NCBI GenBank assembly: GCA_023382935.1 | Contig: JAHDXL010000002.1 | Span: 310,001-374,000 of the forward strand | Length of the DNA: 64,000 nt | Reading direction: 5' to 3' | Source: Phycisphaerales bacterium | GTDB lineage: Bacteria > Planctomycetota > Phycisphaerae > Phycisphaerales > UBA1924 | In this document: positions 15,406 through 55,724 of the stretch, piece by piece | Numbering within the stretch: position 1 is the first letter of the stretch | Layout of the letters: every line of letters begins with the position of its first letter | The notes under the pieces: model-generated | What the model was told of the DNA's origin: nothing | What the model saw: the letters and a program-made list of their open reading frames with translations, nothing else | Database searches by the model: none | Position numbers and translations under genes: made by a program

Positions 15406-15602
15406 GAAGTTGGCTCCAGCGAATGGTAGTCGGAGCGCCGGTGGAACCGGGCGGTCAAAGCGAGGGAAGATGGTTGTGAGGGGCCTCGAACGCCGTTCCG
15501 TTGTTCGGGCGTGTGCTACAGTCCCCGACGAGCCATTCGTGGGATTGGTTGGCATCTGTCCGCGCCTCGTCGACTTACACCGAACAGGGGACGTCAGGAT
15601 TC

Positions 15603-17324: not shown

Positions 17325-17369
17325 CCCGGCAGCGCTTTTTTACCCGCCTGACCGGTTCAGGAGTGCACG

Positions 17370-18491
17370 ATGTCCACCATGCAGATCGACCGCCTGCTCG
17401 ACACGGTGGTCAAGACCGGAGCCAGCGACCTCCACCTGACTGTCGGGCGCCCGCCGACCATCCGCCTCCACGGCGGGTTGCGAAATCTCCAGACCAAGGT
17501 GCTCGATTCCGACGACATGGTCGGGCTCATGAAATCGATCACCCCCGAACGCAACCAGCAGGAACTCCAGGAAGAGGGCGGCACCGACTTCGGCTTCGCC
17601 TACGGCGACGCGGCCCGCTTCCGCGTCTCCGTCTTCCGCCAGCGCGGCGACATTGCCATCGTCCTGCGGCAGATACCGAATAAACTTCTCACGTTTGAGC
17701 AGATCGGTCTGCCCGACATGTGCAAGGATCTGATCCGTCGGCCCAGAGGCCTGTTCCTGGTGACCGGACCTACCGGCTCGGGAAAGACCACCTCGCTGGC
17801 GACGATGATCGACTACGTCAACCAGTACATGGACCGGCACATCGTCACGATGGAAGACCCCATCGAGTACTACCACTACCACAAGAAGTCGATTCTGAAC
17901 CAGCGTGAAGTGGGGAATGACGTTCCCAGTTTCGCCGAGGCCTTGCGCCGCGTGCTGCGCCAGGACCCGGACGTGATCCTGGTGGGCGAAATGCGCGACT
18001 TGGAAACGATCGAGGCGGCCGTGCGAGCCGCCGAAACCGGACACCTGGTGTTTGCGACTCTGCACACCACCGGGGCCGCCAAGACCATCGACCGTATTGT
18101 GGACGCCTTCCCGGTGACCCAGCAGAACCAGATCCGGGTGCAGTTGTCCACGGCCCTGATCTGCATCCTGAGCCAGGTGCTGATGAAGCGGCATGACGTG
18201 CCGGGGCGAGTGGCGGCATACGAGTTCCTCGTCGTGACGCCGGCCATCGCCAACCTGATCCGCGATAACAAGACGTTCCGCATTGACTCGATGATCCAGA
18301 CGGGCCGCAAGTACGGGATGCAGTTGCTGGACGACCACCTGTGGTCGCTGTACCAGAGGGGATGGATTTCGGCCGAGGAGATGATCGACAAGTGCAAGAA
18401 TCAATCTGACCTGACGAACAAGGTCCACGCTTCAGGCGGGACAATCGGACGGATCGAGTTGGACGATGCCGAGTTCCACGCGAACGAATGA
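17370..18491 (+). CDS. pilT: PilT-type retraction ATPase
   Basis: 373 residues. Hexameric ATPase that drives pilus retraction. It has the short PilT N-terminal domain (TGASDLHLTVGRPP), Walker A GPTGSGKTTS, ITVTMEDPIE-like Asp box (IVTMEDPIEYYH), Walker B VGEMRDLETIEAA and the AETGHLVFATLHTT segment. This last block is the PilT signature region and here reads RAAETGHLVFATLHT. AGGAG seven bases before the ATG sets the start. It sits 45 bases after the first pilB and in the same direction, so the two are probably co-transcribed. Presence of a retraction motor favours a true retractile type IV pilus over pure type II secretion. Confidence 0.93.
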   Translation: MSTMQIDRLLDTVVKTGASDLHLTVGRPPTIRLHGGLRNLQTKVLDSDDMVGLMKSITPERNQQELQEEGGTDFGFAYGDAARFRVSVFRQRGDIAIVLRQIPNKLLTFEQIGLPDMCKDLIRRPRGLFLVTGPTGSGKTTSLATMIDYVNQYMDRHIVTMEDPIEYYHYHKKSILNQREVGNDVPSFAEALRRVLRQDPDVILVGEMRDLETIEAAVRAAETGHLVFATLHTTGAAKTIDRIVDAFPVTQQNQIRVQLSTALICILSQVLMKRHDVPGRVAAYEFLVVTPAIANLIRDNKTFRIDSMIQTGRKYGMQLLDDHLWSLYQRGWISAEEMIDKCKNQSDLTNKVHASGGTIGRIELDDAEFHANE

Positions 18492-18676
18492 TCGGGTTGT
18501 AGACGGGTCGTCCGTGATCTGAAGGCAATAGTGAAGTCAATATCAAAGTGGCGTATCAAAAAGCCCCATGCTGTTTGGGTGTGCGCACTTGAACAGGTGG
18601 GGCAATTGTGTCGAATGGGAGGACAGGGCGGTTTGCGCCCCGGTTCTTCCCAGGTCGGACTTGGGAGCGAATGACC

Positions 18677-20410
18677 ATGTCGATGCCTGATCCATCAGAA
18701 CTCAAAGGGCGCAAACTTGGTCGTGTGTTGACCAAGATGGGTGTGGTGACGCGCGAGCAGGTGCACGAGGCGTTGGGGATTCAGAAGACGCGCCGAGTGC
18801 CGATCGGGCAGTTGCTGGTGGAACTGGGGTATTGTACTCAGAAGGATGTGGACGCGGCCTTGGCCGGTCAGGCGGGGATGGCGTACGTCGATCTGAGCAA
18901 ACTGGAGTTGCCAGACGAGGTGCGCGATGCGATTCCGGCAGAGAACGTTCGGGCGTATCAAGTGATTCCCCTGGAGTACAACCCGAAGGGGAGGAAACTG
19001 AAGATCGCGATGAAGAGTCCGGATAACTTCCGGGCGGTGGACGATCTTCGGCTGCTCATGAGTTTCGACGTCGAGGCGGTGGTGGCCGATGCGGCGCGGA
19101 TTGATGAACTGATTGGCAAGTACTACGCCAAGCAGGAATCGATGATGGAGGTCGTGTCCAAACTGGCGGCGGACAGCAAGTTTGCGGGGCTGGCCGAGCG
19201 GGGGACGTCGATCGACCTGGATGCGGTGGCCGAGGCGGCGGGTGACAACCAGGTGATCAAGTTGCTCAATCTGGTGCTTCTGCAGGCGATCAAGGACCGG
19301 GCGTCGGACGTGCACATGGAGCCGTTCGAGAACGAGTTCAAGATCCGGTACCGCATCGACGGGGTGCTGTATGAGATGGTGCCACCCCCGAAGCACCTCG
19401 GACCGGCGATCACGAGCCGCGTGAAGGTCATGGCGCACCTGGATATCGCTGAGCGGCGACTGCCGCAGGACGGGCGCATCGAGTTGACGGTGGGAGGTAG
19501 CCCGGTGGACCTGCGCGTGGCGGTGCTGCCGACGATTTACGGCGAGAGCGTGGTGCTGCGCGTGCTGGACCGGTCAAACGTGCAGTTGAAGTTGGACAAG
19601 GTGGGGTTCCGGGAGGATGACCTGGCGCGATTCCGGCACCTGATCAACAAGCCGAACGGGATCGTGATCGTGACGGGCCCGACGGGGTCGGGCAAGACGA
19701 CGACGCTGTACGCGGCGCTGGCCGAGTTGAACGACATCGAGACGAAGATTCTCACGGCCGAGGATCCGGTGGAGTACGACATCGACGGGCTGTGCCAGTG
19801 CCAGATGAACGCGGAGGTGGGGCTGACGTTTGCGGCGGCGCTGCGGTCGTTCCTGCGTCAGGATCCGGACATCATCCTGGTGGGCGAGATTCGCGACCTT
19901 GAGACGGCGCAGATCGCGGTGCAGGCGTCGCTGACGGGGCACCTGGTGCTGAGCACGCTGCACACCAATGACGCGCCGAGTTCGGTCATCCGCCTGGTGG
20001 ACCTTGGGATGGAGCCGTTCCTACTGACGGCGACGATCGAAGGCATCGTGGCGCAACGTCTGGTCAGGACGCTGGATCCGCGGGTGAAGGAGGAGTACAC
20101 GCCGACGGTCGAGGAGTTGATGGAGTTGCAGTTGAGGCCCGAGGACGTGCGTGGAAGGACTTTCTTCCGTCCGGGCAAGAGCAACGAGATCGGCGGCGGG
20201 TTCAAGGGGCGCATGGCCTTGTTCGAGATCATGGAGATGGACGACACGATGCGTGAGTTGGTGATGAAGGAGGCGAGCACGGCCGTGCTTCGTCAGCACG
20301 CACGCCGGCGGGGCATGCGTTCGCTGCGTGAGAGCGGTTTGCTGGCGATCTACGAGGGTCTGACGACGATCGACGAAGTGGTTCGCGAGACGCTGGCAGA
20401 AGAGGGTTGA
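18677..20410 (+). CDS. pilB: PilB/GspE-type assembly ATPase (second copy)
   Basis: About 577 residues from the ATG at 18677, chosen because GGGAG lies nine bases upstream; the ATG at 18671 is too close to it. MshEN N-terminal domain (LGRVLTKMGVVTREQV, ALAGQAGMAYVDLSKLE), then GPTGSGKTTT, LTAEDPVEYDIDG, VGEIRDLETAQIA and GHLVLSTLHTND. The zinc cysteines are entirely missing (FFRPGKSNEIGGGFKGR). It leads the platform and pseudopilin genes, so it is the likely motor for that apparatus, leaving the first PilB paired with PilT. A 185-base gap separates it from pilT. Third-position bases are noticeably G-rich here, whereas pilB-1 and pilT favour C. Confidence 0.93.
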   Translation: MSMPDPSELKGRKLGRVLTKMGVVTREQVHEALGIQKTRRVPIGQLLVELGYCTQKDVDAALAGQAGMAYVDLSKLELPDEVRDAIPAENVRAYQVIPLEYNPKGRKLKIAMKSPDNFRAVDDLRLLMSFDVEAVVADAARIDELIGKYYAKQESMMEVVSKLAADSKFAGLAERGTSIDLDAVAEAAGDNQVIKLLNLVLLQAIKDRASDVHMEPFENEFKIRYRIDGVLYEMVPPPKHLGPAITSRVKVMAHLDIAERRLPQDGRIELTVGGSPVDLRVAVLPTIYGESVVLRVLDRSNVQLKLDKVGFREDDLARFRHLINKPNGIVIVTGPTGSGKTTTLYAALAELNDIETKILTAEDPVEYDIDGLCQCQMNAEVGLTFAAALRSFLRQDPDIILVGEIRDLETAQIAVQASLTGHLVLSTLHTNDAPSSVIRLVDLGMEPFLLTATIEGIVAQRLVRTLDPRVKEEYTPTVEELMELQLRPEDVRGRTFFRPGKSNEIGGGFKGRMALFEIMEMDDTMRELVMKEASTAVLRQHARRRGMRSLRESGLLAIYEGLTTIDEVVRETLAEEG

Positions 20411-20483
20411 ACAGATCGCGGCGCTGCGGCGTCGCGCCATGTGCTGAGAGCGGTCGGTGCGTCCGGCCGGGGAGTAGAAGTCG

Positions 20484-21776
20484 ATGACGACGTTCGCATA
20501 CGAAGCGATCGACGCGGCGGGAAAGACGCAGAAGGGCACCATCGAGGCGGCCAACAGCGAAGAGGCGATTTCGCGGATTCGCAAGCAGGGTTACTTCCCT
20601 CAGTCGGTCAAGCCGGTGAAGGACAAGAAGGGTGCCAGGGGCGGCGAAGCGGGCGCACCGGCGAAGAGGCGGAAGAGGAAGAGCGGGACGCCGCTGGCGA
20701 TCGGCAGCGTCTCGCAGAAGAAGTTGACGCTGTTTACGCGGCAGTTGTCGACGCTTCAGGATGCCGGTCTGCCGCTGCTGCGTTCGCTGCAGATCCTGGA
20801 GAGCCAGCAGCGTCCGGGATTGATGAAGAAGATCCTGCAGGGCGTGTGCGAGGAGGTGGAGGGCGGCACGAGTCTGTCGGAGAGCATGGCGAAGTTTCCC
20901 AAGGCCTTTGACAAGTTGTATGTGAAGATGGTGAACGCGGGCGAGATCGGCGGCGTGCTGGACATCATCCTGCAGCGTCTGGCCGAGTTCATGGAAAAGA
21001 GCCAGCGTCTGAAGAGGAAGATCAAGGGCGCGATGGTGTACCCGATCGTGGTGGTGTGCATCGCGATGCTGATTTTGACCGCGATCATGATCTTCATCAT
21101 CCCGAAGTTCGAGGCGATCTTCAACGACTTCGGCGTGGATCTGCCGTTCCTGACAATCTGGCTGATCAACACGAGCCGCTGGTTCGCCGGGTCGAACCCG
21201 GGGCAGAGCATCCCCGGCGGGGCGATCGTGGGCATCGGGCTGGTGGTGGGGTTCATCCTGGTGAAGTTGTCGCGCAAGACGCCCCCGGGCAAGGCGCTGA
21301 CGGACATCCTGATTCTGTGGACTCCGATCTTCGGCTCGCTGGTGCGCAAGACGGTCGTGGCACGATTCACGCGGACCCTGGGAACGCTGATCTCGGCGGG
21401 CGTGCCCATTCTCGAAGCCGTGACGATCACCAAGGAGACGTCGGGCAACTACGTGTTCGAGAAGGCGCTGGGAAAGGTGCACGACTCGATTCGCGAGGGC
21501 GAGACGTTCGCCGGGCCGCTGCGTGAGAGCAAGACGTGCGACCCGATCGTGGTGAACATGATCGACGTGGGCGAGGAGACGGGCGAACTGGACGTGATGC
21601 TCTTGAAGATCGCGGACAACTACGACGAAGAGGTGGACGTGGCGGTGGCGTCGCTGGTGTCGCTGCTGGAGCCTTTGATGGTGGTGATGCTGGGCGGCAT
21701 GGTCGGGACGATCGTGGTGGCGATGTTCCTGCCGCTGGTGGCGATGATCGAGTCCTTGCAGGGCGGCGGCATGTGA
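20484..21776 (+). CDS. pilC: PilC/GspF-type inner-membrane platform protein
   Basis: 430 residues. Membrane platform that couples the assembly ATPase to pilin polymerisation. It opens with the family motif FAYEAIDAAGKTQKG, has a Lys/Arg-rich linker at about 50-75, two repeated cytoplasmic helical GspF domains (FTRQLSTLQDAGLPLL and FTRTLGTLISAGVPIL), and hydrophobic helices at about 190-215, 245-270 and the C-terminus (VVMLGGMVGTIVVAMFLPLV). Length is normal. It follows the second pilB by 73 bases, and GGAG precedes the ATG. Confidence 0.94.
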   Translation: MTTFAYEAIDAAGKTQKGTIEAANSEEAISRIRKQGYFPQSVKPVKDKKGARGGEAGAPAKRRKRKSGTPLAIGSVSQKKLTLFTRQLSTLQDAGLPLLRSLQILESQQRPGLMKKILQGVCEEVEGGTSLSESMAKFPKAFDKLYVKMVNAGEIGGVLDIILQRLAEFMEKSQRLKRKIKGAMVYPIVVVCIAMLILTAIMIFIIPKFEAIFNDFGVDLPFLTIWLINTSRWFAGSNPGQSIPGGAIVGIGLVVGFILVKLSRKTPPGKALTDILILWTPIFGSLVRKTVVARFTRTLGTLISAGVPILEAVTITKETSGNYVFEKALGKVHDSIREGETFAGPLRESKTCDPIVVNMIDVGEETGELDVMLLKIADNYDEEVDVAVASLVSLLEPLMVVMLGGMVGTIVVAMFLPLVAMIESLQGGGM

Positions 21777-21785
21777 TCGGCAGAT

Positions 21786-21809
21786 CGCGCGGGCCGCTCG
21801 GCCCGCGCG
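21786..21809 (+). repeat. Perfect 10-bp GC hairpin abutting a ribosome binding site
   Basis: CGCGCGGGCC, loop GCTC, and the exact complement GGCCCGCGCG. It ends one base before the AAGGAG of the next gene. There is no T run. A similar hairpin precedes the gene at 58706, and a weaker one lies before the gene at 27073. Confidence 0.75.
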
Positions 21810-21822
21810 GAAGGAGTGCGCG

Positions 21823-22824
21823 ATGAACATCGCAGCAGGAAATCGCCAATCTCCGCGTCGCGCGTTCACGCTGGTAGAGGTGCTCGTGGCGATCGTGGTG
21901 ATTGGGGTGTTGATGGCGCTGCTCATCACTGGGCTGAACGCGGCGGGGGTGTTTGCGCGCAAGTCGGCCGACCAGCAGACGCTCAACTCGATCGCCACGG
22001 CAACGACGCAGTTTGAGACGACGTTCGACTTCCTGCCGCCGCTGGTGTACGACGGGGCGGAGATGGGAGCCGGCTCGGCCACGTCGCGGGGCGCGTTCAG
22101 CAACACCGGTCCGGTCTACACCGCCGGATCGCGGCGGCTGGTGAATGTGTACAAGATGGGTGACGCGAACGCGCGGGCGTTCCTGATGGGCTCGGCGGTC
22201 AGCGCGGCTACACCATATCGGGATGCGCGGTACAGCAAGTTCTCGATCCCGATCTACCTGATGGGATCGATGCCCGTGGATGTCGACGGGGTGCAGGGCC
22301 TGGGCATGGTGGCGCCGGCGCGGGACGGATCGTGGGCGGGCGTGGGGGACGCGATGACCGTCGGGAGCCAGCAGTTTGAGCCGTTCATGGAGGGCGGGCG
22401 CACGTCGGCGCGGCTGTCGCCCAACTACTTCGACCCGGCGGAGCAGAGCGAACTGGGTGGGGGCAGCGTGACCGACCGGAGCAACCGCGACGCGCTGGTG
22501 GATCGCAACGGAAAGGCGTTCCGGTATTACCGGTGGCTGCATGAGGACAGCGTGCAGAGGCCGGGCGATCTGAACATACCCGCGGCGCTGATCGACCCGC
22601 TGATTCTGCAGAGTTCGCTGGGAGATCCGACGCTGGATGTGACGGATGGAAACGCGGAATTGCGCGGCGCGACGTGGGCGCTGCTGGGGGCCGGAAGCGA
22701 TGGGCTTTTCGGAACGGAGGACATTGCGACGCTGCGTGATCGACTGAAAGCACCGAGCGACATGCCCGAGGGACTGGTGCGTCAGAAGGCGATGCAGGAC
22801 AACCTGGTGAGGGTGGGGCGATGA
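21823..22824 (+). CDS. Pseudopilin-like protein with type IV N-terminal methylation motif
   Basis: 333 residues. The class III leader ends RRA and is followed by FTLVEVLVAIVVIGVLMALL, so the residue before the cleavage site is Ala rather than Gly, while Phe1 and Glu5 are kept. Prepilin peptidase should still accept it, perhaps less efficiently. The rest is a poorly conserved globular region of about 270 residues, larger than a normal GspG/H pseudopilin. AAGGAG and an adjacent hairpin precede the ATG. It is first in a run of five pseudopilin-like genes that overlap by four bases, so it is probably a minor pseudopilin of the same apparatus. Exact homology to GspG or GspH is not clear. Confidence 0.85.
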   Translation: MNIAAGNRQSPRRAFTLVEVLVAIVVIGVLMALLITGLNAAGVFARKSADQQTLNSIATATTQFETTFDFLPPLVYDGAEMGAGSATSRGAFSNTGPVYTAGSRRLVNVYKMGDANARAFLMGSAVSAATPYRDARYSKFSIPIYLMGSMPVDVDGVQGLGMVAPARDGSWAGVGDAMTVGSQQFEPFMEGGRTSARLSPNYFDPAEQSELGGGSVTDRSNRDALVDRNGKAFRYYRWLHEDSVQRPGDLNIPAALIDPLILQSSLGDPTLDVTDGNAELRGATWALLGAGSDGLFGTEDIATLRDRLKAPSDMPEGLVRQKAMQDNLVRVGR

Positions 22825-24095
22825 ACAGGCACCATGCGAACCGGGGATTCACGCTGGTCGAGTTGTTCGTGGTGATCGCGGTGGCGTTGATCGCCATTGC
22901 GGCGGCGCTGCCGGCGTTCACAGCGATGACGGCCTCTTCAAACCGATCGCTGGCCGAGAACACGCTGCAGGTGGCGGTGACGATGGCTCGCGACGTGGTG
23001 ATGCAGTCATCGCGTGGGACCGACGGGGCGGCGGTGTTCCTGTATGACGCGGCGAACAAGCGGATGAGGATCGTCGCGGCCGAGTATGTGGGCACGATCA
23101 CCGACACCGTGGACGGAAACGCGAACCTGACGATCGAGCGTGACGTGTTTGCGCCGGTGCTGGTGGGGGAGACGACGGAACTGCCTCCGAACTGGATGGT
23201 GCGTGGATTTGTGCCGGCGCGGTTCACGACCACGGCCGGGGGGCCCGGGTTCGGGTATGACTGGTACGACTCGGACCTGTATGCGACGGGAAATGCCTGG
23301 CGGCGCGGGCACTGGGTTTTTCCGGAAGACGGTTTTTATGACGTGACAGGATCGCCGACGTCGGCCAGGCCGGTGGGGCGGACGCCTCGGCAGTCGTTCA
23401 TGATTCGCTTTGACGGACGGACGGGACAGATCAGGCGAGACGGGCGTGAATCGCTGTTGATTGACCCGAGGCCGTCGTCGTTGAACCGGCAGGCGGATCT
23501 GGGCGGTTACGGCGTGACAGCGGGCTCGCGGAATGATCCTGGCGCCTGGCTGCGGGTGGACTGGGCGGAGAACCTGGTGTCGTGGGGGCGGCGCGTGGTG
23601 AGCGAGCCGGACCTGAACGGGAACGGGCTGCCTTACGAGGTAAACGATGAGCGGCTGCGCCGGGCGCTGATCGGCAACCAGTCGCTGGACACGGTGCTGG
23701 TGTCGGATGTGTCGCGGGTGGCGCTGTACGACGAGCGCGATCTGGCGTCGGCGCTGGGAGCCAGCCAGATGTCGCGTCGCGGCGGCGGCAAGGACACGGG
23801 CTCTTTGTACGAGGCCTATGACGCGACGAGCGGGAACATCGCGATCGACTACGAAGGGCTGTTCACCGGCAACTCGGCGTTCAGCGCCAGCAGCGCGGGG
23901 CAGGCCAACCTGCGCGACAGTATCGACCGGTGGATCGACGGGGACACCAATCGCGTGGGCACGGCGACGAACTTCGTGCTGGGCAACGGGGTGCTGTTCG
24001 AGGGGCCGGAGTCCTTGGGCGGAGCAGATGAGCCGAAGGCGCTGCGATACCTGGTAGACCCGTACAGCGGGGAGTTGACGGAGGTGGCGCGATGA
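22821..24095 (+). CDS. GspH/FimT-like pseudopilin, oversized
   Basis: 424 residues. A standard leader (NRG then FTLVELFVVIAVALIAIAAALP) with Glu5 is followed by the GspH-like helix end TASSNRSLAENTLQVAVTMAR, where GspH proteins have their typical helix-to-strand turn. The remaining 350 residues are a beta-rich region of unknown fold, about 2.5 times the size of GspH. The start codon overlaps the previous stop by four bases (ATGA), showing translational coupling. Place in the gene order suggests the GspH position. Confidence 0.85.
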   Translation: MNRHHANRGFTLVELFVVIAVALIAIAAALPAFTAMTASSNRSLAENTLQVAVTMARDVVMQSSRGTDGAAVFLYDAANKRMRIVAAEYVGTITDTVDGNANLTIERDVFAPVLVGETTELPPNWMVRGFVPARFTTTAGGPGFGYDWYDSDLYATGNAWRRGHWVFPEDGFYDVTGSPTSARPVGRTPRQSFMIRFDGRTGQIRRDGRESLLIDPRPSSLNRQADLGGYGVTAGSRNDPGAWLRVDWAENLVSWGRRVVSEPDLNGNGLPYEVNDERLRRALIGNQSLDTVLVSDVSRVALYDERDLASALGASQMSRRGGGKDTGSLYEAYDATSGNIAIDYEGLFTGNSAFSASSAGQANLRDSIDRWIDGDTNRVGTATNFVLGNGVLFEGPESLGGADEPKALRYLVDPYSGELTEVAR

Positions 24096-25192
24096 GCAGA
24101 CCGATTTCCGTCAGAGCGCGAACGGGCTTTTCGCTGATCGAGGTGCTGATCGCGGTGCTGGTGCTGGCGCTGGGCCTGCTGGGGCTGGCGGCGGTGTTCC
24201 CCGTGGTGATCGCGCAGCAGCGGGACGCAGTGGATCGCACGCGCGGAGCGATCGTGGCCGAGACGGTGCAGCGCATGCTGACCGACGCGGAGAACCTGGT
24301 CTCGTTCGAGGGATTGCGGCGCGATTACCTGTTCTCGATGCAGAGCGGGAACGCCAGTGACGTATGCCGCACGGGCATGGACCTGAACCCGGAGTACATG
24401 ACATTTCTGTGGGAGCCAACGTGGCAGTGGGCCACCTCGGGCGGCGGGCACTGGGTGCAGCAGCCGCAGGTGAACTATGAGCGATACGGCGATGTGCTGG
24501 TGGGCTTCGGGCGCACGTATACGCTGGAGTGTTATGACCTCCCGTCGCAGGCTGCGCAGCAGTATGTCCTGCCGGTGACGGGGCGTCTGTTTCCTCAGCC
24601 GTACTCGGGCGAAGAGCCGCAGTACGTGTGGGACATTGTGCCCCGGCGTGTGCGTCTGGGGGGGAACAAGACGGGTCTGGAGATCGCGGTGTTCATCCGG
24701 CGGATCGATCCGCGGATCGCGGTGCCGCGGGGGTACACGCTGTCGGACGTGCTGACGCGGACGCGGTTGCCGGCCAACCAGCAGCGCTTGCCGCTGGGGG
24801 TGGACGTGGACGGGCGCCCGACGGGGACGGGCGCGCCGGCAAACGGGAGCGGGACGTACTCGCTGCCGCAGGTGATGCCGGTGTTCGTGCGCTCAAGCGA
24901 GCCGGACATGCTGGTGCTGAGCGGGACGGCCACGGCCTTACAGCGGCAGCGCTGGACGGCGCAGGTGGCCGTGCCGGGGCAGACGGTGGTGGACAACCTG
25001 GGCCATGTGCTCAACGTAGTGAAGGTGCCGGAACTGACGGGCAGCGAGTTGAAGGTGCAGGTGGATCGTCGCTACCCGACGTCGCAGGCCGACTACGTGG
25101 CCGGGGCCGATCCGCGCGGGGTGAAGGTGGAGCAGATCGTGTACACGCCGCAGAAGCCGGTGCGGGTGTTCACGTACCGGGCCGAGTGGTGA
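24092..25192 (+). CDS. GspI/PilV-like pseudopilin, oversized
   Basis: 366 residues. Leader ends RTG, followed by FSLIEVLIAVLVLALGLLGLAAVFPVV, which is the PilV/GspI helix with its characteristic LALGLLGLA. Glu5 is present. After the helix it continues with about 320 residues, against about 80-140 in GspI or PilV. Its start overlaps the previous stop by four bases. By order and helix type it is the GspI-like member of a tip complex. Confidence 0.86.
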   Translation: MSRPISVRARTGFSLIEVLIAVLVLALGLLGLAAVFPVVIAQQRDAVDRTRGAIVAETVQRMLTDAENLVSFEGLRRDYLFSMQSGNASDVCRTGMDLNPEYMTFLWEPTWQWATSGGGHWVQQPQVNYERYGDVLVGFGRTYTLECYDLPSQAAQQYVLPVTGRLFPQPYSGEEPQYVWDIVPRRVRLGGNKTGLEIAVFIRRIDPRIAVPRGYTLSDVLTRTRLPANQQRLPLGVDVDGRPTGTGAPANGSGTYSLPQVMPVFVRSSEPDMLVLSGTATALQRQRWTAQVAVPGQTVVDNLGHVLNVVKVPELTGSELKVQVDRRYPTSQADYVAGADPRGVKVEQIVYTPQKPVRVFTYRAEW

Positions 25193-25203
25193 TGGGAGAA
25201 GCG

Positions 25204-26988
25204 ATGAAGCACAACTCCGAGCAACCCGGATTCACGCTGCTGGAGACGCTGATTGTCGTCGGGCTTGTGGCGTTGCTGTCGCTGGGCATCGCCGGGGTAT
25301 TCAACACGGTGGGAGACACGATCGCGCGTGGGAAGCGCGTGAGCGAGTTGAACCGGACGGCCGCGCAGATCGAGCGGATCATGCGGCGGGATTTCGAGCA
25401 GATGACCCGGGAGGGCACGCTGGTGATCCGCAGCGCATACGCGAACTTCGGGCAGCCGGTCTCGCTGTTCGACCCGACGCGGTTTGAAGGCGCGCCGCAG
25501 GCGCGGGCGCGTCGGGTGGACGAGATCGCGTTCTTTGCGCACTCGGACTCGGGCGAGTTTCAGACCGCGCGGCGGGCAATGCATCCCGACCTGGTGGCCA
25601 GTTCATCGGATGCGCGGATTTACTACGGGCATGGGATTCGACAGACGCGGCCGTTCGCACCGAACAACACGGCGGCGGTCCGGAACAACGGATATTACCG
25701 CCCCTGGCTGGCCGATCCGAACCTGACGGAGGGATCGGGCGCTCAGGCGCGAGGGCTTGGAGTGCCCGGGACAGCGGGGGCGCCCAACCCCAACGAGTAT
25801 GCCAGCGACTGGGGGCTGCTGCGTCATGTGCTGCTGATGGTGACTCCGGAGAAGACGGAGACGCAGATTCCGCAGGAAATGGTGAACGTGGTCGGCAACC
25901 GCGCGTTGCTGGCCGACAACAAGGTGCAGGTTGCGATGCAGCCGGCGGTGCAGAGTCCGTTCCGGATGTTGTCGCGTGAGGTGCCTCGGCGTCCAGCGGA
26001 CATCTGGGGGGTGTCGAGTTACCGGGTCGATCCTGCGGCCGGAGTTCCCTGGCTGACCTCGGGCATCGTGGACATCACGACCTCGACGCTGGGGTACGTG
26101 CAGGCGGTGGTGAACCACTTTGACGTTCGCCCGCTGGATTTCCGCCCGCGCAACCAGGAGTTCAAGGATTACTTCGATCCGCGAGTTTTGAACGACCGGT
26201 ACCTGATGCAGTTGTGGATGCTGGAGACGTTTCCGGCCAGTCCGAACCGTGGGAGCGATCCGTATTCGTCGCGGCACACGCGGATGCGGTTTGAGTATGA
26301 GCCGCCGCTGCTGACGATCACGGAAGGGGATCTGTCGAGCAACGCGCCGTTCCGCGAGTTGGAGCGAGCGTATCGGCAGGCCGACCAGGAGATGCTCCCT
26401 GCTTCGGTGTTCGTGGCCGGATGCACGGAGTTCATCGTGGAGTGGACGTACGGGCTGATCGACGACGTGGTCGGCTCGCCGACGTACGGGCAGTTGATCT
26501 GGTACGGACTGCCGCGGTACGAGGACGTGAACGGCAATGGGGTGTACAACGCGAACGTCGATCCGCTGATCGCGCAGCCTTTCACGGGCGTGAATGCGGG
26601 CCTGGTGCTGCCGCGCCTGATCGGCGGGGAGTCTGACGACTACTGGGATCCGCCGGCGCGGGAGTGGTATTACCCGACGAGGCAGTTGATCAACGCGGAC
26701 TTGCCGCTGCCGTCGATGCAGCCGGGCGCGCAGACGGAGTTGTCGTTCTTCGGGTTCTATGACCCGGGGCCGCTCGAGGAGGATGATGATCCGGACGACG
26801 AAAGTTGGGCTCATGACGACTGGACGGATACGTCGGAGCCGGTGGACAACCCGGCGGACGATCGTCCGTGGCTGTGGCCCTCGATGATCCGCGTCACGAT
26901 GACGCTGGCCGAGCGGGATGACCCGACGAGCGAACGGACGTACCAGGTGATCTTTTCTGTTCCCGGAGGTGGGTTGGACAACAGGTAG
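25204..26988 (+). CDS. GspJ/PilW-like pseudopilin, oversized
   Basis: About 594 residues. The ATG at 25204 has GGGAG five bases upstream; an ATG at 25192 overlapping the previous stop is possible. The leader ends QPG and is followed by FTLLETLIVVGLVALLSLGI with Glu5. The next helix, LNRTAAQIERIMRRDFEQM, resembles the long N-terminal helix of GspJ. The C-terminal 450 residues are unlike anything I know and include an acidic run (LEEDDDPDDES) near residue 520. GspJ is normally about 200 residues. Order and helix suggest the GspJ position. Confidence 0.86.
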   Translation: MKHNSEQPGFTLLETLIVVGLVALLSLGIAGVFNTVGDTIARGKRVSELNRTAAQIERIMRRDFEQMTREGTLVIRSAYANFGQPVSLFDPTRFEGAPQARARRVDEIAFFAHSDSGEFQTARRAMHPDLVASSSDARIYYGHGIRQTRPFAPNNTAAVRNNGYYRPWLADPNLTEGSGAQARGLGVPGTAGAPNPNEYASDWGLLRHVLLMVTPEKTETQIPQEMVNVVGNRALLADNKVQVAMQPAVQSPFRMLSREVPRRPADIWGVSSYRVDPAAGVPWLTSGIVDITTSTLGYVQAVVNHFDVRPLDFRPRNQEFKDYFDPRVLNDRYLMQLWMLETFPASPNRGSDPYSSRHTRMRFEYEPPLLTITEGDLSSNAPFRELERAYRQADQEMLPASVFVAGCTEFIVEWTYGLIDDVVGSPTYGQLIWYGLPRYEDVNGNGVYNANVDPLIAQPFTGVNAGLVLPRLIGGESDDYWDPPAREWYYPTRQLINADLPLPSMQPGAQTELSFFGFYDPGPLEEDDDPDDESWAHDDWTDTSEPVDNPADDRPWLWPSMIRVTMTLAERDDPTSERTYQVIFSVPGGGLDNR

Positions 26989-26998
26989 GCGGCGCGGA

Positions 26999-27022
26999 GC
27001 CCGCGGGTCGAGCGGGCCCGCG
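26999..27022 (+). repeat. GC-rich inverted repeat between the fourth pseudopilin and the giant GspK-like gene
   Basis: GCCCGC pairs with GCGGGC (27012-27017); alternatively CGCGGG at 27002 pairs with CCCGCG at 27017. It begins 10 bases after the stop codon and lies about 40 bases before the AGGAGA of the next gene. Weaker than the other intercistronic hairpins in this window. Confidence 0.45.
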
Positions 27023-27072
27023 TTGGACGCGGTCGGGCAAGTTTCGTGCTGCGGACGTGCAGGAGAAGCAAG

Positions 27073-30000
27073 ATGGCGATCGACAAGACGACACAACGCG
27101 GCGCGCCGTCGGCGGTGCGCCGAGGGTCGATCCTGATCCTGGTGCTGGGCATCCTGGCGCTGATGGCGGTGATCGCGGCCGTGTATGTGACGATCGGGCT
27201 GGGAGACCAGCGATCGGCCCGGGCAGTGGAAGCCCGGCAGGATCTGAACAGCATCGGGCCGATGATCGGAGACTACATCGCCGAGGTGATCGCGCAGGAC
27301 CGGCTGGACATCACGTGGCGTGCAGGAACGAACGACACCGGGCTGGCGTCTCAGCCATACCGGGAGACGGTGGATTACCCGTCGACCGATTTCACCGCGC
27401 TGAGCACTCCAGAAGAGGGCGATATCAACGGACGGCGCTATCCGCTCGCCCAGGTCAATCACTATCGGTTCCGTCCGTCGGGTGGGCATCCGAACCCGTG
27501 GCATCAGTTGAACCGCCCGGACCTGGATCCGCGCATGCCGAGCGACCCGTATCTGGCCTCGACCGAGCCGACGTTCCTGGGCTTGCCCGGCGAGCGCGAG
27601 TATCCGTCCGACCCGACCAAGTGGTGGCTGGACAACCGCGATTGGATGCAGATTTCGAACCTGGCGCCGGACGGGATGTTTGTGAACCTGTTTGCGCTGC
27701 GGAACAATTTTGATGCGCCGCGCGGGTTCCGCATCCAGAACCAGATGAGTTTCTGGCTGTCGCTGATCGGGCGCGACCCGGGGAGCGGGCTGCTCTACGC
27801 CACGCCGAACCTGCCGTGGGGAGCGGCGGCCGACAAGAACCGTCCCTTCCACTGGACGATGTACCAGCGGAACATGTTTTTCCCGATCAATCAGCCGTTC
27901 CTGTTCCTGGACCGCGACGGAGCGACGGCCGGGTGGGGCAGCCCGGACTACCCGGCCTATCAGTATGCCGACGCCGATGGCGACGGGTTCGTGGACAGCC
28001 GCTGGTTTGAACTGCGGGATTCAACGTTTCTCGGGCAGGAGTTAAACCTGCTTCCGGGGGTGAAGGACTACCGCGTGTTCGCGGCCGTTCGGGTGATGGA
28101 CCTGAGCGGGCTGGTGAATGTGAACACGGCGACGGACAACTCGATTGCCCCGACGCTGGAGGCGCCGCTGGGTTCGAGCGTGGCGGAGATCGACCTGCGG
28201 CGCGTGCTGACGATGCACGACGTGGCGATGGACTTCACGTCGACGATCCCGCAGGTGGTGTCGGTGGATCCCACACTGACGTACTCGAGCATTTCGCGGC
28301 CGAAGGATTGGCAGACGGCGCTGGTCGAGCACGGCAACTCTGATTACTCGCTGTACGACGCGACGATGCTGGCGACCGGTCCCGACGGGCTGGCGATGAG
28401 GACGGAGGTGATCGGCTGGTATGCGTATGACGCGCTGCGCCGCGAGATCCAGAACGATTACAGTTTCACGCCTCCGACGGCGGTGGGGTATGTTCAACCG
28501 GGCTTTGGCGACGTGTCGGACTATGACGAGTCGGACCAGTTGGTGCCGTTCTCGCCGTTTGAATACAACATGTACCTGAAGTCGGACGGGTCGGAGAGTG
28601 ACACTCTGCTGGCCGACATGGACTTCCGTGCGCTCAATCGTGTGCGGTACGCGCAGCGTGTGGGGGCGATGGACCCGCTGGATGCCAGTTATCGGCCGAG
28701 TAGCCGGGAAGAGGCGGACGACCGATTCGGGCGGGCCATCTTCGGACTTGCGGACCTGAGCGAGTTGCTGACCTATCGCGGGCTGAACGACCCGGCGACC
28801 ACTTCGCGGCTGGAGGCGACGCTGGACGCTCGCCTGGACGACGAGAACAACTCAAACAACGCGTACTGGCAGACGACGCGGCGTTTCGGACCGATGCGTT
28901 CAAGTCGAGCGCTGGCGTACGAGCGTCTTGGACTGGACGATCGGATTCGCGGGCAGGAGTTTCTGCCCGGCGCGCAGAGCAGGCCGGACGGTCTGATCGA
29001 CGACGACGCCATGGCGATGATGGCCGTGTCGCCCCGGGCGCTGCTGACGACGATCAGCGGCGGCTCGGAGATTCGCAACCGCGGTTTTCTGTGGAACCGC
29101 GACTGGCAGGTGGATGGAACGGGCGAGTGGGGGCTGCTGCCTTCGTCGCTTTCGAACCAGGCCAAGCGGGAGTATGAACTGACGGGGCGTCATGCGGCCC
29201 TGTTCCACTGGATCCGCGATCCGGGGGAGCCGATCACCAACCCCGAGCGCGTGGTGACGTGGACCGAGGCCAAGCCTTATCTTCTCGACGCGTCGGGCAA
29301 CGTGCCGGCGCTGTTCGAGATCTATCGTGCGGCCCTGGCGGGGTATTCGACCATTGACCAGGCGTGGACGCGCGACGTGACCAACGCGGCCTACCTGCGG
29401 TATCGCACGCTGTTCTACGGATACGGTGGCCCTGAACTGGCGATGCGGACTGCGGCGCACATGGCTGTGAACTTCAAGGACCAGGCCGACGGAGACAGCG
29501 TGCCGACGGTGGCGACGCTGATTGCGTCGGTGACGACTCCGAACGTGGACGACTGGCGTCAGAACCCGACGGTCGATCCGCTGGTCAATACCATCGAGAA
29601 CACCGATCGGGGTCGGAATTATCCGGGCGGGCTGCCGGGTCGGCGGCTCATTCCGCCTTATGCATGGGGCGACAACGCGCAGTTGGCCGAGTCGCGAGCG
29701 ATCAACATTTACGGAATCGAGGCCCAGCCTTTCCTGGTCGAGGCCATGTCGATCAACATCTACACGGACGCTCCGCGCCACAATCCTCCGCCGCGTCCGA
29801 GCCCCTACCGCGATGATCCGGATGGCGATCGGGATCACATCACGGCGGGATGCGTGAACCCTCCGGATGGGTTGCAGCCGCCTCCGGCGCCGTCAATCAC
29901 GGTGGGCGGGAAGTTGACCAGCGGCGACTGGAGTTCGAACGCGACGGTGTGGGAGAAGAACTCCGACTTTGTGATGCAGGTGTTCGCGGTCAAACTGCAC

Positions 30001-33000
30001 AACCCGTTCAACGTGCCGGTGGTGCTGGGTGCGGGGACTTCAGGCCCGGCACCGCTGAGCCGGAGTGACGAGGATTCGTGCCCCAACTGCACCACGGAAC
30101 TGGAGGGAGTGCGTGCGTTCGACTACTACATCGAGTTTGGCGGGCGCTATTTCAAACTGGCCAGGTACGAGCCTCCGATCGCCGACGAGTTGCTTCTGGA
30201 CGACAACCTGCCGCGAGCGTACACGCAGTCGGCGGTCACGATGCAGCCGGGCGAGACAAGGGTGTTCTACGCGCTGGGGCAGGAGGACGAGGAAGAGATC
30301 ATCAAGCGCTGGCAGCGCTACCTGATCAACTACGGGTATGGCCCGGCCTCGTTCGCCCAGGTGCAGCAGGTTTTCAATGACTGGATCCGGCGGCAGTTCC
30401 TGGACTCGGGCAACGCCGAGCCGGTGTGGATGCGCCGTTTCAATCCCGAGTCAGGCTTGCTCATCAACGCCTACAACGGGTGCGACGTGGACCCCGATGC
30501 CGAGCCGGCGTGTCGGCGCGGTTCGTGGAACCCGGCGTGGGATCAGCGGCTGACGTTCGAGGATCTTTTCGAGGATCCGCGGCGAAACCTCTCATATCGC
30601 GACGAGCAGACGCGGCTGTTCCCGACGCAGGCATCGGGCGGCGACGGCCCGCGCGACCCCGAGTTCCAGGTGGTGCGCCTCTGGCGGAAGATCACCGTCG
30701 GAGAAGAAGAGACGCGCTGGAATGGCTCGCTGAACGACAGCGACAACTGGATGGAGAACGACCTGCTGGTCGATCGCCTGCGTGAGCCGAATCCAGACAC
30801 GCTGACGTTGCCCAGTCCGGGCACCTATCCCGATCCGGCGTTGCGTTTTGGTCACCTCGACTCGCGTCTGCCGTACGCGGGCGGATACGGCGGCGACTTC
30901 AACTCCGAACCGCGCGTCGTCGGCACGGAAGGCCGCTGCCAGGACACTCGGACGAGTTTCATGGTGGGAACGGAAACCTACGAGAATCACAACACGGGGT
31001 TCACGATTGCGACGCATTCGTTCATCCGCCGGCGTGGGTTTGCCGCATCGAGCGATGCGATGAGCGGGGGCAACCTGTTGCGCGGGGTGCTGCCGCAGTG
31101 GTGCATCGAGACGATTCAGAACAGGCGCACTCCGGGATCGAATGACTACCAGGGAGAAGGCGATCCGCAGAACATCAAGGGCGGGCAGGTGCCGAGCGGC
31201 GTGGGACTGGATCTGACCGATTTCGGTGTGGCGCCGTATTCCAGTGCGTGGTTTGGGCCCGTGATCGGGTATACGCCGCTGCCGGTGGGCGTGGTCAACA
31301 TGACTGGGCCTGTGGAGGTGACCTTCAACCAGAGGCCGGAGCAGTGGACCAACGCGGTCAAGACCAACCTGATGGACGACACGCTGTACGGGATGACCGG
31401 CGGCGCAGCGCCTCGGAGCGGTGGAGGAGCGCAGAATCCAGAACTGCACATCCGCAACGATGGCCTGGTGAACGACAACGGAACAGAGCAGATCGACATT
31501 TCGCGTGTCACCGACCTGCTCAAACCGTGGGCGATCGGGCCAGAGTACGACCCGTTCCCGCAGGAGATCATCCCGGGCAACGGCGTTCCCGATGACAACG
31601 ATCCGTCGCTGCAGGGGCGGTGGCTGACGCTGGGCGAAGCGATCGCGCTGGCGCTGGCGTTTGAGCGCGAGCCCGAGGGTGTCTACAGCCGCTACACCTA
31701 CTTCGACCCGCACAAGCGGCATGTGCGCTCGCTTTCGGATCCGAGGCCGGACGATCGCCCCGGCGCGGCGCCGACCGGGCACCGGGATTACGTGTTCGAT
31801 CGCTGCCAGTTGAAGTTGCACAAGTTCGTGCCGTTCGTCAATGTCGATCAGGACGTGGACGGCGTGTATAACGTGGCCTCGGGCGATCGCGTGCTGGGCG
31901 ACGGCGTGCCGATGGCGCTGACGCTGTTCGACAGCGTGCAGACCTCGGTGCAGGGCAATTGGAACAGCGTGCTCCGGCGTCCGGTGCCGGGCAAGATCAA
32001 CATCAACACAGCCCCGTTGCGCGTGCTGCGCACGATCGGAATCCTCAGCCCTGGCGAAGGATTCGATGCGCTGGGCATGCCGGAGAACTGGATGTGGCGT
32101 CTGGCCGGCGAATACGGCGGACTGGGGACCAGTTCGTCGCAGAATCCAAATCAGTACGTGAACTGGGTGGGCGGACCACCGGGCAGCCAGTCAGACTTCG
32201 GCAATCTGGGCCTGCCCGATGCTCGTTCGATGGACGTGGCCGCGACGATCTTCTCATATCGCGACCGGACGGGTCAGATTCCCTTCCGTTATTCGTCCAT
32301 GCCGGATTCGCTGGTGAACAACAACTTCGGCGGCCCGGGCGGGTGGAACTGGGGCTTCGTGCCCTATCTCGATCCAGGCTCGGGCTTCTCTCAGGCCGAT
32401 CTGTTCACGGTGGCGGGCAACGAACGGCGCCTCATCGAGAACAACCGGGCGTATGACCCGACGCTGGGCGCGGCGCCGGATCGCGGACGTGAAGCATTGA
32501 CCGGCATCATCGGCATCCGCGAGTCGCCGGGCTTCGCGTCGCTGGGCGAAGTGATGGCGGCACGCTTCCGGCAGGACTTCGTGGAGACCTTCCCCAGCGC
32601 CGCGAATCAGACCCGTCTGAACAACCGCGAAGCGGCCCTAGCCGGGATGGACGTGCTGGGGCGTGACCAGAAGGTGGCCGGGGCCGGCTCGCCTACGCCA
32701 GCGCCCGGACGACTGGTCACTTTTGAAAGCACCAACGCCGGTGCCGAGTTCAAGGTGCGCATCGAGGGCGCCGGGTACACGGCCGACCAGTTGAGCGATG
32801 AACTGGGCAACGACTACGACGAACAGTTGGCCCTGGCCTCGCAGGTGCTGGAACTGGTGACCACTCGAAGCGACTACTTTGCGGTCTGGTTCGTGGTGCA
32901 TGGATACACGCGCGAGGACGTGAGCAATCTCACTGGCGACGTGAACAACCTCAACCTGCCCAATGCCGACCCGCTTGTCCCAAGTTTCGCTCGGCGTTAC

Positions 33001-33123
33001 CTGATGGTGATAGACCGCAGCGCGGTGGGTACCTGGGATGACCGCAACAGCGACGGCAAGGTCGAGGAGTCCGAGATCGTGACCAAGCCCAGGGTGGTGC
33101 TGTTCCGCGAGGTACCTATGTAG
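27073..33123 (+). CDS. Giant GspK-like minor pseudopilin
   Basis: About 2,016 residues from ATG at 27073, with AGGAGA seven bases upstream. The N-terminus has the RRGSILILVLGILALMAVIA helix that, as in GspK/PilX, lacks Phe1-Glu5. Two copies of the GspK-type asparagine-threonine motif are visible, GLVNVNTA near residue 348 and PGKININTAPLRVL near 1640, so the protein looks like a GspK built up by duplication and large insertions. Normal GspK is about 330 residues. Long stretches are Asp/Pro/Tyr/Trp-rich and probably extracellular, with one CPNC (about residue 1003) and several isolated cysteines. It closes the locus, before a strong terminator, and takes the GspK place after H-, I- and J-like genes. 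Confidence 0.87.
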   Translation: MAIDKTTQRGAPSAVRRGSILILVLGILALMAVIAAVYVTIGLGDQRSARAVEARQDLNSIGPMIGDYIAEVIAQDRLDITWRAGTNDTGLASQPYRETVDYPSTDFTALSTPEEGDINGRRYPLAQVNHYRFRPSGGHPNPWHQLNRPDLDPRMPSDPYLASTEPTFLGLPGEREYPSDPTKWWLDNRDWMQISNLAPDGMFVNLFALRNNFDAPRGFRIQNQMSFWLSLIGRDPGSGLLYATPNLPWGAAADKNRPFHWTMYQRNMFFPINQPFLFLDRDGATAGWGSPDYPAYQYADADGDGFVDSRWFELRDSTFLGQELNLLPGVKDYRVFAAVRVMDLSGLVNVNTATDNSIAPTLEAPLGSSVAEIDLRRVLTMHDVAMDFTSTIPQVVSVDPTLTYSSISRPKDWQTALVEHGNSDYSLYDATMLATGPDGLAMRTEVIGWYAYDALRREIQNDYSFTPPTAVGYVQPGFGDVSDYDESDQLVPFSPFEYNMYLKSDGSESDTLLADMDFRALNRVRYAQRVGAMDPLDASYRPSSREEADDRFGRAIFGLADLSELLTYRGLNDPATTSRLEATLDARLDDENNSNNAYWQTTRRFGPMRSSRALAYERLGLDDRIRGQEFLPGAQSRPDGLIDDDAMAMMAVSPRALLTTISGGSEIRNRGFLWNRDWQVDGTGEWGLLPSSLSNQAKREYELTGRHAALFHWIRDPGEPITNPERVVTWTEAKPYLLDASGNVPALFEIYRAALAGYSTIDQAWTRDVTNAAYLRYRTLFYGYGGPELAMRTAAHMAVNFKDQADGDSVPTVATLIASVTTPNVDDWRQNPTVDPLVNTIENTDRGRNYPGGLPGRRLIPPYAWGDNAQLAESRAINIYGIEAQPFLVEAMSINIYTDAPRHNPPPRPSPYRDDPDGDRDHITAGCVNPPDGLQPPPAPSITVGGKLTSGDWSSNATVWEKNSDFVMQVFAVKLHNPFNVPVVLGAGTSGPAPLSRSDEDSCPNCTTELEGVRAFDYYIEFGGRYFKLARYEPPIADELLLDDNLPRAYTQSAVTMQPGETRVFYALGQEDEEEIIKRWQRYLINYGYGPASFAQVQQVFNDWIRRQFLDSGNAEPVWMRRFNPESGLLINAYNGCDVDPDAEPACRRGSWNPAWDQRLTFEDLFEDPRRNLSYRDEQTRLFPTQASGGDGPRDPEFQVVRLWRKITVGEEETRWNGSLNDSDNWMENDLLVDRLREPNPDTLTLPSPGTYPDPALRFGHLDSRLPYAGGYGGDFNSEPRVVGTEGRCQDTRTSFMVGTETYENHNTGFTIATHSFIRRRGFAASSDAMSGGNLLRGVLPQWCIETIQNRRTPGSNDYQGEGDPQNIKGGQVPSGVGLDLTDFGVAPYSSAWFGPVIGYTPLPVGVVNMTGPVEVTFNQRPEQWTNAVKTNLMDDTLYGMTGGAAPRSGGGAQNPELHIRNDGLVNDNGTEQIDISRVTDLLKPWAIGPEYDPFPQEIIPGNGVPDDNDPSLQGRWLTLGEAIALALAFEREPEGVYSRYTYFDPHKRHVRSLSDPRPDDRPGAAPTGHRDYVFDRCQLKLHKFVPFVNVDQDVDGVYNVASGDRVLGDGVPMALTLFDSVQTSVQGNWNSVLRRPVPGKININTAPLRVLRTIGILSPGEGFDALGMPENWMWRLAGEYGGLGTSSSQNPNQYVNWVGGPPGSQSDFGNLGLPDARSMDVAATIFSYRDRTGQIPFRYSSMPDSLVNNNFGGPGGWNWGFVPYLDPGSGFSQADLFTVAGNERRLIENNRAYDPTLGAAPDRGREALTGIIGIRESPGFASLGEVMAARFRQDFVETFPSAANQTRLNNREAALAGMDVLGRDQKVAGAGSPTPAPGRLVTFESTNAGAEFKVRIEGAGYTADQLSDELGNDYDEQLALASQVLELVTTRSDYFAVWFVVHGYTREDVSNLTGDVNNLNLPNADPLVPSFARRYLMVIDRSAVGTWDDRNSDGKVEESEIVTKPRVVLFREVPM

Positions 33124-34425: not shown

Positions 34426-34534
34426 GGGCCCAGTGTAGGGCTATGCTGGCAGGGAGGGGTTGTGACTCCAAGTGCTGACGGAAAGAGCGACCCATCTCAT
34501 CTCAGTGGGTTCACCCAGACTACAGGAGAAGCAA

Positions 34535-53372: not shown

Positions 53373-53398
53373 AGCGAGAGTGGCGAAGATGTGCATAA

Positions 53399-53427
53399 TG
53401 GCATAAGATGATCCGAAAGTCTACAAT
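53399..53427 (+). promoter_or_regulatory. Weak promoter candidate before the second cytochrome paralogue
   Basis: TACAAT at 53422-53427 preceded after 17 bases by TGGCAT, in the 125-base gap between the two fused cytochromes. The -10 is good, the -35 poor. Confidence 0.3.
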
Positions 53428-53497
53428 AGCGTCCGGTTTCCCGTGGGCGGGTGTGCCGCGGGGAAGGCGGCGACGGGGGCCCGGGGGCTTCCACTGA

Positions 53498-55717: not shown

Positions 55718-55724
55718 GCATGTG

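What the first reader, a model, noticed from the sequence alone, without database searches (positions are those of the whole stretch)
21823..33123. Five giant or oversized pseudopilins in a GspH-I-J-K-like order
Class III leaders and helix types identify GspH-, GspI-, GspJ- and GspK-like members in the standard order, but lengths are roughly 2 to 6 times normal (424, 366, 594 and 2,016 residues). The last keeps two INxNTA-type motifs about 1,290 residues apart, suggesting internal duplication. The tip complex of such a machine would be very large, perhaps a substrate-specific or adhesive cap. I know of no described tip complex of this size.
Basis: partly seen in the sequence, partly recalled or inferred. 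Interest (0 to 1): 0.75.

Follow-up and report, generated by a model that had tools for sequence, protein, structure and literature searches.

The report
Giant GspK-like pilus-tip protein set
This bacterium, from a planctomycete order, has genes for a retractable pilus whose tip proteins are several times normal size, ending in a roughly 2,000-residue protein that is an ordinary tip pilin with a huge extra block inserted in its middle, and the same set is kept across the order, so these cells probably carry an unusually large binding or sensing cap on their pili.

Summary
Five consecutive genes (window 21823-33123) carry class III prepilin leaders and are 2 to 6 times the E. coli GspG-K lengths: 333, 424, 366, 594 and 2,016 residues. 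They follow PilB-PilT-PilB-PilC in one unit. All nine genes keep this order in 23 of the 24 re-fetched loci of the same family (the other is cut by a contig end) and mostly in further families of the order (Phycisphaerales). The last protein is 1,165-2,400 residues long there; compact relatives have 846-897.

The giant is a GspK homologue. Its leader helix matches GspK's N-terminus; its last ~400 residues match GspK's second NxNTA module and, weakly, terminal strands. A weak model of the 846-residue relative aligns to solved GspK (3CI0_K) at Z 10.9 through its two ends. The two INxNTA motifs are GspK's own pair pushed ~1,290 residues apart, not a new duplication. The insert holds a lamin-tail-like beta domain plus regions of unknown fold.

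PilT and two PilBs with c-di-GMP-binding motifs point to a retractable type IV pilus, not a secretion pseudopilus. Most likely the set is the pilus tip and the insert a binding or sensing cap; that role is inferred. Novelty: a new variant of a known kind.

The parts
15501..17324 (+). PilB-like assembly ATPase 1 (MshEN domain, c-di-GMP-binding motif)
   Evidence: PF00437 E 3e-122, PF05157; TIGR02538 579 bits (cut-off 676), NF053729 c-di-GMP motif 54 bits (cut-off 38)
17370..18491 (+). PilT-type retraction ATPase
   Evidence: TIGR01420 450.5 bits, over the curated cut-off of 319
18608..20410 (+). PilB-like assembly ATPase 2 (MshEN domain, c-di-GMP-binding motif)
   Evidence: PF00437 E 2e-132; TIGR02538 615 bits (cut-off 676), NF053729 45.9 bits (cut-off 38)
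20484..21776 (+). PilC/GspF platform protein
   Evidence: PF00482 E 2e-62; GspF 391 bits (cut-off 424), PilC 386 bits
21823..22824 (+). p1, G-like prepilin, 333 aa
   Evidence: N_methyl 31.4 bits; GspG model 22.8 bits against cut-off 88.9
22821..24095 (+). p2, H-like prepilin, 424 aa
   Evidence: N_methyl 23 bits; GspH model 20.5 bits (cut-off 80), behind a myxobacterial PilA model at 29 bits
24092..25192 (+). p3, I/PilV-like prepilin, 366 aa
   Evidence: TIGR02523 PilV 42.6 bits (cut-off 52.2)
25204..26988 (+). p4, J-like prepilin, 594 aa
   Evidence: TIGR01711 GspJ 25.8 bits (cut-off 64.9)
27073..33123 (+). p5, giant K-like prepilin, 2,016 aa
   Evidence: RRG|SILILVLG leader; conserved in relatives; GspK matches at both ends
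27124..27228 (+). p5 leader cleavage site and N-terminal helix (residues 27-61 of the 2,025 numbering)
   Evidence: hhalign residues 22-86 to GspK profile 3-67, 85%; reversed control 1.8%; only hydrophobic segment, residues 21-55
27970..27996 (+). p5 DADGDGFVD, calcium-loop-like motif before motif 1
   Evidence: regex hit in 33 of 39 relatives
28114..28131 (+). p5 motif 1, VNVNTA (GspK first module)
29713..30270 (+). p5 insert: lamin-tail-domain-like beta domain
   Evidence: hhalign 93.2% to LTD domains of related genomes, reversed control 0.1%; lamin Ig structures head the structural matches of a weak model of the compact relative's segment, Z 5.3-6.2
31996..32016 (+). p5 motif 2, ININTAP (GspK second module)
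   Evidence: hhalign 95.1% to GspK 214-246; 97.1% for module against module
32860..33120 (+). p5 C-terminal beta strands closing the pilin fold
   Evidence: hhalign to GspK 268-317, in the right order but weak (7%; 32% for this part alone); hmmsearch 15.7-16.5 bits in the compact relatives

Best explanation
Window 15501-33123 encodes the motor, platform and tip of a retractable, type IVa-like pilus. PilB (two copies with c-di-GMP-binding motifs) extends it and PilT retracts it. The enlarged H-, I-, J- and K-like prepilins form the tip complex that starts assembly and stays at the distal end, as GspH-I-J-K and PilX-type minor pilins do. The K-like protein is a GspK homologue in which about 1,300-1,600 residues, including a lamin-tail-like beta domain, are inserted in the helical domain that ordinary GspK already carries inside its pilin fold. 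The fold is closed by strands from the far C-terminus. The insert projects as a large cap that most likely binds a surface, polymer or cell, or senses force, in the place that PilY1 takes in other pili. Shown: gene content, order, conservation, GspK homology of both ends, position of the insert. Inferred: tip position, adhesion or sensing, replacement of PilY1.
For: Conserved nine-gene order: 23 of 24 re-fetched family loci complete, one cut by a contig end; mostly kept in the order. PilT over its cut-off, two PilBs with c-di-GMP motif, PilC. hhalign of p5 ends to GspK 85% and 95.1%, middle segments at most 0.5%, reversed controls at most 1.8%. Canonical GspK HMM matches compact relatives L086/L088 at both ends (1.5e-8 and 5.7e-7 at the C-terminal end). 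Weak model of L088 K: the top three structural matches are all GspK, 3CI0_K Z 10.9 (rmsd 3.0, 108 residues, model 33-811), 9A1F_T 8.2, 5VTM_X 7.5; best other 5.8. LTD-like insert. A GspK-N-terminal protein of a genome in the same order (L074) carries three LamG lectin-type domains. PilM in the genome. GspK caps the GspI-J-K trimer and its extra domain lies inside the pilin fold (PMC7248040, PMC8179133). Pili-like fibres of other planctomycetes bind dextran (PMC5394234).
Against: The window protein itself fails every curated GspK threshold (12.5 bits against 130). Both AlphaFold models are weak (mean pLDDT 31.9 and 43.3), and Foldseek gave no match better than E 0.04. Tip position is not tested. 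The secretin and major pilin of this machine are not identified; candidates at another locus (C5) are not linked. The PilY1 search rang in none of 41 genomes but also in none of the control genomes.
Confidence: 0.7

Rival explanations
1. A type II secretion pseudopilus whose giant tip recognises very large or special substrates and pushes them through a secretin.
For: The tip genes resemble GspH-I-J-K in order, and GspK-like features are clearest in p5. T2SS tip complexes bind substrates (PMC6211770).
Against: PilT lies in the operon, and the ATPases score better with PilB than GspE models. No secretin, GspC, GspL or GspM gene was found in the stretch read. The same genome has a separate T2SS-like cluster (GspE, F, G, H, I, J, K and a PilM/GspL-like protein) with tip proteins of about 250-560 aa.
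Confidence: 0.15
2. A DNA-uptake (competence) pilus: the insert binds DNA, as proposed for the ComZ minor pilin of Thermus.
For: Retractable pilus genes; a minor pilin with a large domain inserted in its beta-sheet, thought to bind DNA, is known from Thermus (PMC8179133).
Against: The tip proteins are acidic rather than basic (p5 13.1% acidic, 9.2% basic); no competence gene was found next to the operon.
Confidence: 0.1
3. Internal duplication or fusion of two GspK-like proteins.
For: Two INxNTA motifs; the two surroundings match each other at 89.7% over 47 columns.
Against: Ordinary GspK has the same pair with the same mutual similarity (84.5%). There is one leader helix, and the terminal strands match only at the C-terminus. 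The middle of the protein has no GspK match.
Confidence: 0.04
4. Frameshift, assembly or gene-calling artefact.
For: Such lengths are rare.
Against: Long open frames at the same place in dozens of genomes and uniform codon-position composition.
Confidence: 0.01

Closest known systems
GspK (XcpX), minor pseudopilin of T2SS (NF037980, PF03934; structures 3CI0, 5VTM)
   Same: Leader without Glu5, N-terminal helix, helical domain with two NxN modules inserted in the pilin fold, C-terminal strands, last of the H-I-J-K order. GspK binds calcium (PMC6211770); p5 has a calcium-loop-like motif before motif 1.
   Different: 2,016 aa against 327 in E. coli; about 1,290 instead of about 110 residues between the two modules; a lamin-tail-like domain in the insert; scores below the curated cut-off; partnered with PilT.
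Verru_Chthon cassette proteins A-D (TIGR02600, 02599, 02598, 02596)
   Same: Large prepilin-like family (A has 1,296 model positions). Order-level relatives weakly match its first ~70 and last ~80 positions; p1-p3 weakly match cassette proteins D, C and B at the leader.
   Different: No match over the cut-off; bodies not alignable here; the cassette's function is not described in the papers searched.
Modular pilins (e.g. S. sanguinis PilB and PilC, Thermus ComZ)
   Same: A functional domain grafted on or into a pilin and shown at the filament tip (PMC8179133).
   Different: The survey in that paper gives 860 residues as an extreme case; here it is 2,016 and the scaffold is GspK with its own helical domain.
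PilX plus PilY1 tip of type IVa pili
   Same: Large tip adhesin or sensor on a retractable pilus (proposed function).
   Different: No PilY1 propeller found in 41 genomes (control silent, so not proven); the bulk is inside the minor pilin itself.

Membership tests
GspK minor pseudopilin | Class III leader with hydrophobic residue instead of Glu5 | tested here: met
   RRG|SILILVLGILALMAVIA
GspK minor pseudopilin | Score over the curated NF037980 cut-off (130 bits) | tested here: not met
   12.5 bits; homologue, not filed as an equivalog
GspK minor pseudopilin | Two NxN modules and C-terminal strands in the right order | tested here: met
   Second module 95-97%; first module weaker (34.5%); terminal strands in order but weak (7-32%)
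GspK minor pseudopilin | Pilin fold built from both termini around the helical domain | tested here: inconclusive
   L088 relative to 3CI0_K Z 10.9 across residues 33-811, but the model has mean pLDDT 31.9
GspK minor pseudopilin | Last gene after H, I and J prepilins | tested here: met
Type IVa pilus machine | PilB, PilT and PilC | tested here: met
   PilT 450.5 bits (cut-off 319); PilB close to but under its cut-off; PilC/GspF models match strongly but under cut-off
Type IVa pilus machine | PilM and partner proteins | tested here: inconclusive
   PilM_2 115-118 bits at contig C6, not linked to the operon; PilN/PilO partners not recognised by Pfam
Type IVa pilus machine | Its own secretin and major pilin | tested here: inconclusive
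   Four secretins in the genome; which serves this machine is unknown
Type IVa pilus machine | PilY1 | tested here: inconclusive
   None in 41 genomes, but no control genome rang either
Type II secretion system | GspD, C, L, M with GspE-K and no retraction ATPase | tested here: not met
   PilT present, none of GspD/C/L/M found in the stretch read
Verru_Chthon cassette protein A | Score over the TIGR02600 cut-off (332 bits) | tested here: not met
   No match for the window protein at E<=1; relatives at most 25 bits
Lamin tail domain (insert) | PF00932 over its cut-off | tested here: inconclusive
   Pfam only E 0.18 in one of seven; profile comparison 93.2%; fold matches Z 5.3-6.2, CBM3 modules tied within 1

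The most novel reading that the evidence does not exclude
Phycisphaerales and related planctomycetes build type IV pili capped by a tip complex with an estimated mass of more than 350 kDa. The GspK-like tip pilin itself carries a huge, variable ligand-binding insert (lamin-tail-like here; lectin-type LamG in a GspK-like protein of another genome of the order). It does the work of PilY1 and captures polysaccharides or prey or host surfaces for retraction-driven uptake or contact.
Probability: 0.35. Interest if true: 0.75.

Novelty: new variant of a known kind. Interest (0 to 1): 0.6.

Why it matters
Planctomycetes show pili-like fibres that bind dextran and take up large polymers (PMC5394234), but the molecules at the fibre tip are unknown. 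A conserved operon with an identifiable giant tip pilin gives a concrete gene to delete, label and purify. It also raises a mechanical question: how a tip protein of about 200 kDa passes the secretin.

Tried and rejected
Internal duplication: rejected. Pfam scans of 25 family members of the giant gave no domain at E<=0.05. PDB sequence searches with three profiles gave nothing relevant. AlphaFold models of the compact relative (813 aa) and of its insert (221 aa) were weak, because only seven sequences were allowed as alignment; Foldseek matches were not significant, though GspK chains (ranks 5, 7, 21) and lamin Ig chains stood near the top. One of my LTD comparisons used domains read on the wrong strand and gave nothing; repeated correctly. 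My first extraction of reference GspK proteins mixed up strands; redone with six-frame search. Literature: no paper on 'Verru_Chthon cassette' and none linking GspK to planctomycetes beyond the modular-pilin survey.
Full report
WHAT IS THERE. From the best starts they encode 333, 424, 366, 594 and 2,016 residues. E. coli K-12 GspG-K are 145, 169, 125, 195 and 327 residues by their annotated coordinates, so the excess is about 2.3, 2.5, 2.9, 3.0 and 6.2 times. Each has a single hydrophobic segment, at the leader, and the codon-position G+C pattern is flat over all six kilobases of the last gene. Upstream in the same direction lie two PilB-like ATPases with MshEN/c-di-GMP-binding motifs, a PilT over its curated cut-off, and PilC/GspF.

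CONSERVATION. The organism belongs to the planctomycete order Phycisphaerales, judging by the named relatives. Homologues of the giant were found in 44 of 61 related genomes. In 23 of 24 family loci that I fetched again, all nine genes PilB-PilT-PilB-PilC-p1-p2-p3-p4-p5 are present in that order, the other locus being cut by a contig end; most loci from other families of the order agree. Mature lengths are steady: p1 252-366, p2 332-415, p3 318-518, p4 519-722; the giant is 1,441-2,067 in the family members measured, 1,165-1,700 in other families of the order, and about 2,400 in one frame cut by a contig start. Two named relatives have compact forms of 846 and 897 residues (L088, L086), and one alignment runs along compact and giant forms with shared blocks throughout.

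WHAT THE GIANT IS. I built a profile from 30 planctomycete GspK proteins plus E. coli GspK. Its consensus has the sequence 'DE.gKlNlN' about 100 residues in and 'GkvNiNTAp.eVL' about 100 further on, followed by strands that begin 'itv.S..F'. The giant has DLSGLVNVNTA ending at residue 362, PGKININTAP ending at 1657 and TTRSDYFAVWF at 1939 (2,025 numbering). Profile against profile, residues 22-86 match GspK 3-67 (85%), the second motif region matches GspK 214-246 (95.1%; 97.1% when only that module is compared), and the last stretch matches GspK 268-317 in order but weakly (7%; 32% when that part is compared alone). Four middle segments give at most 0.5% and reversed controls at most 1.8%. The first motif region matches GspK's first module only weakly (34.5%). 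A plain HMM search finds both ends in the compact relatives (C-terminal end 1.5e-8 and 5.7e-7). An AlphaFold model of the L088 relative is poor overall (mean pLDDT 31.9), yet when Foldseek's candidates are realigned, the three GspK structures lead the list: 3CI0_K Z 10.9 with 108 residues aligned across model residues 33-811, 9A1F_T 8.2, 5VTM_X 7.5, against 5.8 for the best unrelated chain. With 108 residues spread over nearly the whole 813-residue model, the natural reading is that the pilin fold is built from both termini with everything else inserted; the low confidence of the model keeps this short of proof.

NO DUPLICATION. The two motif regions of the giant do resemble each other (89.7% over 47 columns), but so do those of ordinary GspK (84.5% over 59 columns). 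The pair is inherited; what changed is the spacing, from about 110 residues to about 1,290.

THE INSERT. Around residues 890-1075 the family profile matches lamin-tail domains taken from related genomes at 93.2%, with the reversed profile at 0.1% and other non-overlapping segments of the protein at most 1.3%. A separate weak model of this stretch from the compact relative (mean pLDDT 43.3) gives lamin Ig domains as its nine best structural matches (Z 5.3-6.2), with cellulose-binding CBM3 modules within one Z unit; this is a lead, not proof. An almost invariant DADGDGxxD loop, calcium-site-like, precedes motif 1 (33 of 39 relatives by regex); GspK of E. coli and P. aeruginosa binds calcium (PMC6211770). 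The remaining ~500 variable residues between about 1080 and 1580 have no match.

HOW IT PROBABLY WORKS. PilT and PilB-type ATPases make this a retractable pilus machine rather than a secretion pseudopilus; the genome has a separate T2SS-like cluster with smaller tip proteins (H, I, J 246-300 aa and K 556 aa as open frames). GspI-J-K-like proteins are known to start assembly and remain at the tip, with GspK as cap (PMC7248040). Pilins with grafted domains are thought to show those domains at the tip (PMC8179133). I infer that p2-p5 form the tip and that the insert binds or senses something outside the cell. In favour of carbohydrate or surface binding: dextran-binding pili-like fibres in other planctomycetes (PMC5394234), and a GspK-N-terminal protein of 1,298 residues in another genome of the order that carries three LamG lectin-type domains, although without PilB/PilT/PilC genes next to it (L074). 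PilY1 was not found in 41 genomes, but the control set was also silent.

WHAT IT IS RELATED TO. The window protein is a GspK homologue far below the curated GspK cut-off, so I do not file it as GspK. NCBIfam's Verru_Chthon cassette protein A is a large prepilin-like family whose first ~70 and last ~80 positions weakly match order-level relatives; the shared plan of leader at one end and pilin strands at the other suggests, but does not prove, that it is a cousin. The claim of novelty is therefore a new variant of a known kind: an order-wide GspK-like tip pilin with a very large insert.

LIMITS. No experiment bears on location or binding. The secretin and major pilin of this machine are unassigned; a locus on contig C5 with two short GspG-like prepilins and an 870-residue secretin is a candidate. 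Structure predictions were limited by the allowed alignment depth.

Noticed in passing
Own genome G000:C9:74953-88707 (L076/L077): A secretin of about 4,580 residues: ribosome-binding site, signal-peptide-like start, an N0-like stretch, at least 41 Secretin_N domains in the 4,234 residues scanned (PF03958, 1,253 bits) and one Secretin domain, directly downstream of a T2SS-like cluster with ordinary-sized parts. Secretins in open frames of 3,000-5,000 aa occur in many of 61 relatives. No such giant secretin appeared in the one paper search made.
   Followed up: partly
L125-L139 (other planctomycete families): A second class of giant GspK-like proteins (about 890-2,090 aa): GspK N-terminus at E about 1e-8 to 1e-13, second motif mostly early, then a long C-terminal extension; several share an ending of the type GDxLEIRVYFxY.
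   Followed up: partly
L074:11956-15849: 1,298-aa protein with a GspK N-terminus (NF037980 E 3e-9) and three LamG/ConA-like domains (E 4e-60), without PilB/PilT/PilC homologues nearby.
   Followed up: partly
Own genome, all contigs: 63 N_methyl (prepilin leader) matches in 3.7 Mb, including a group of about seven at C5:135-149 kb.
   Followed up: no
window 51117-58660: Cluster of four multihaem-cytochrome-type proteins (Cytochrome c3/c7, MtrC/MtrF-like, doubled CXXCH, cytochrome b561) followed by a redoxin-TPR protein.
   Followed up: no
window 34472-38335: Tricorn-like protease (PD40 propeller, PDZ, S41) just downstream of the pilus operon; linkage to it in relatives not checked.
   Followed up: no
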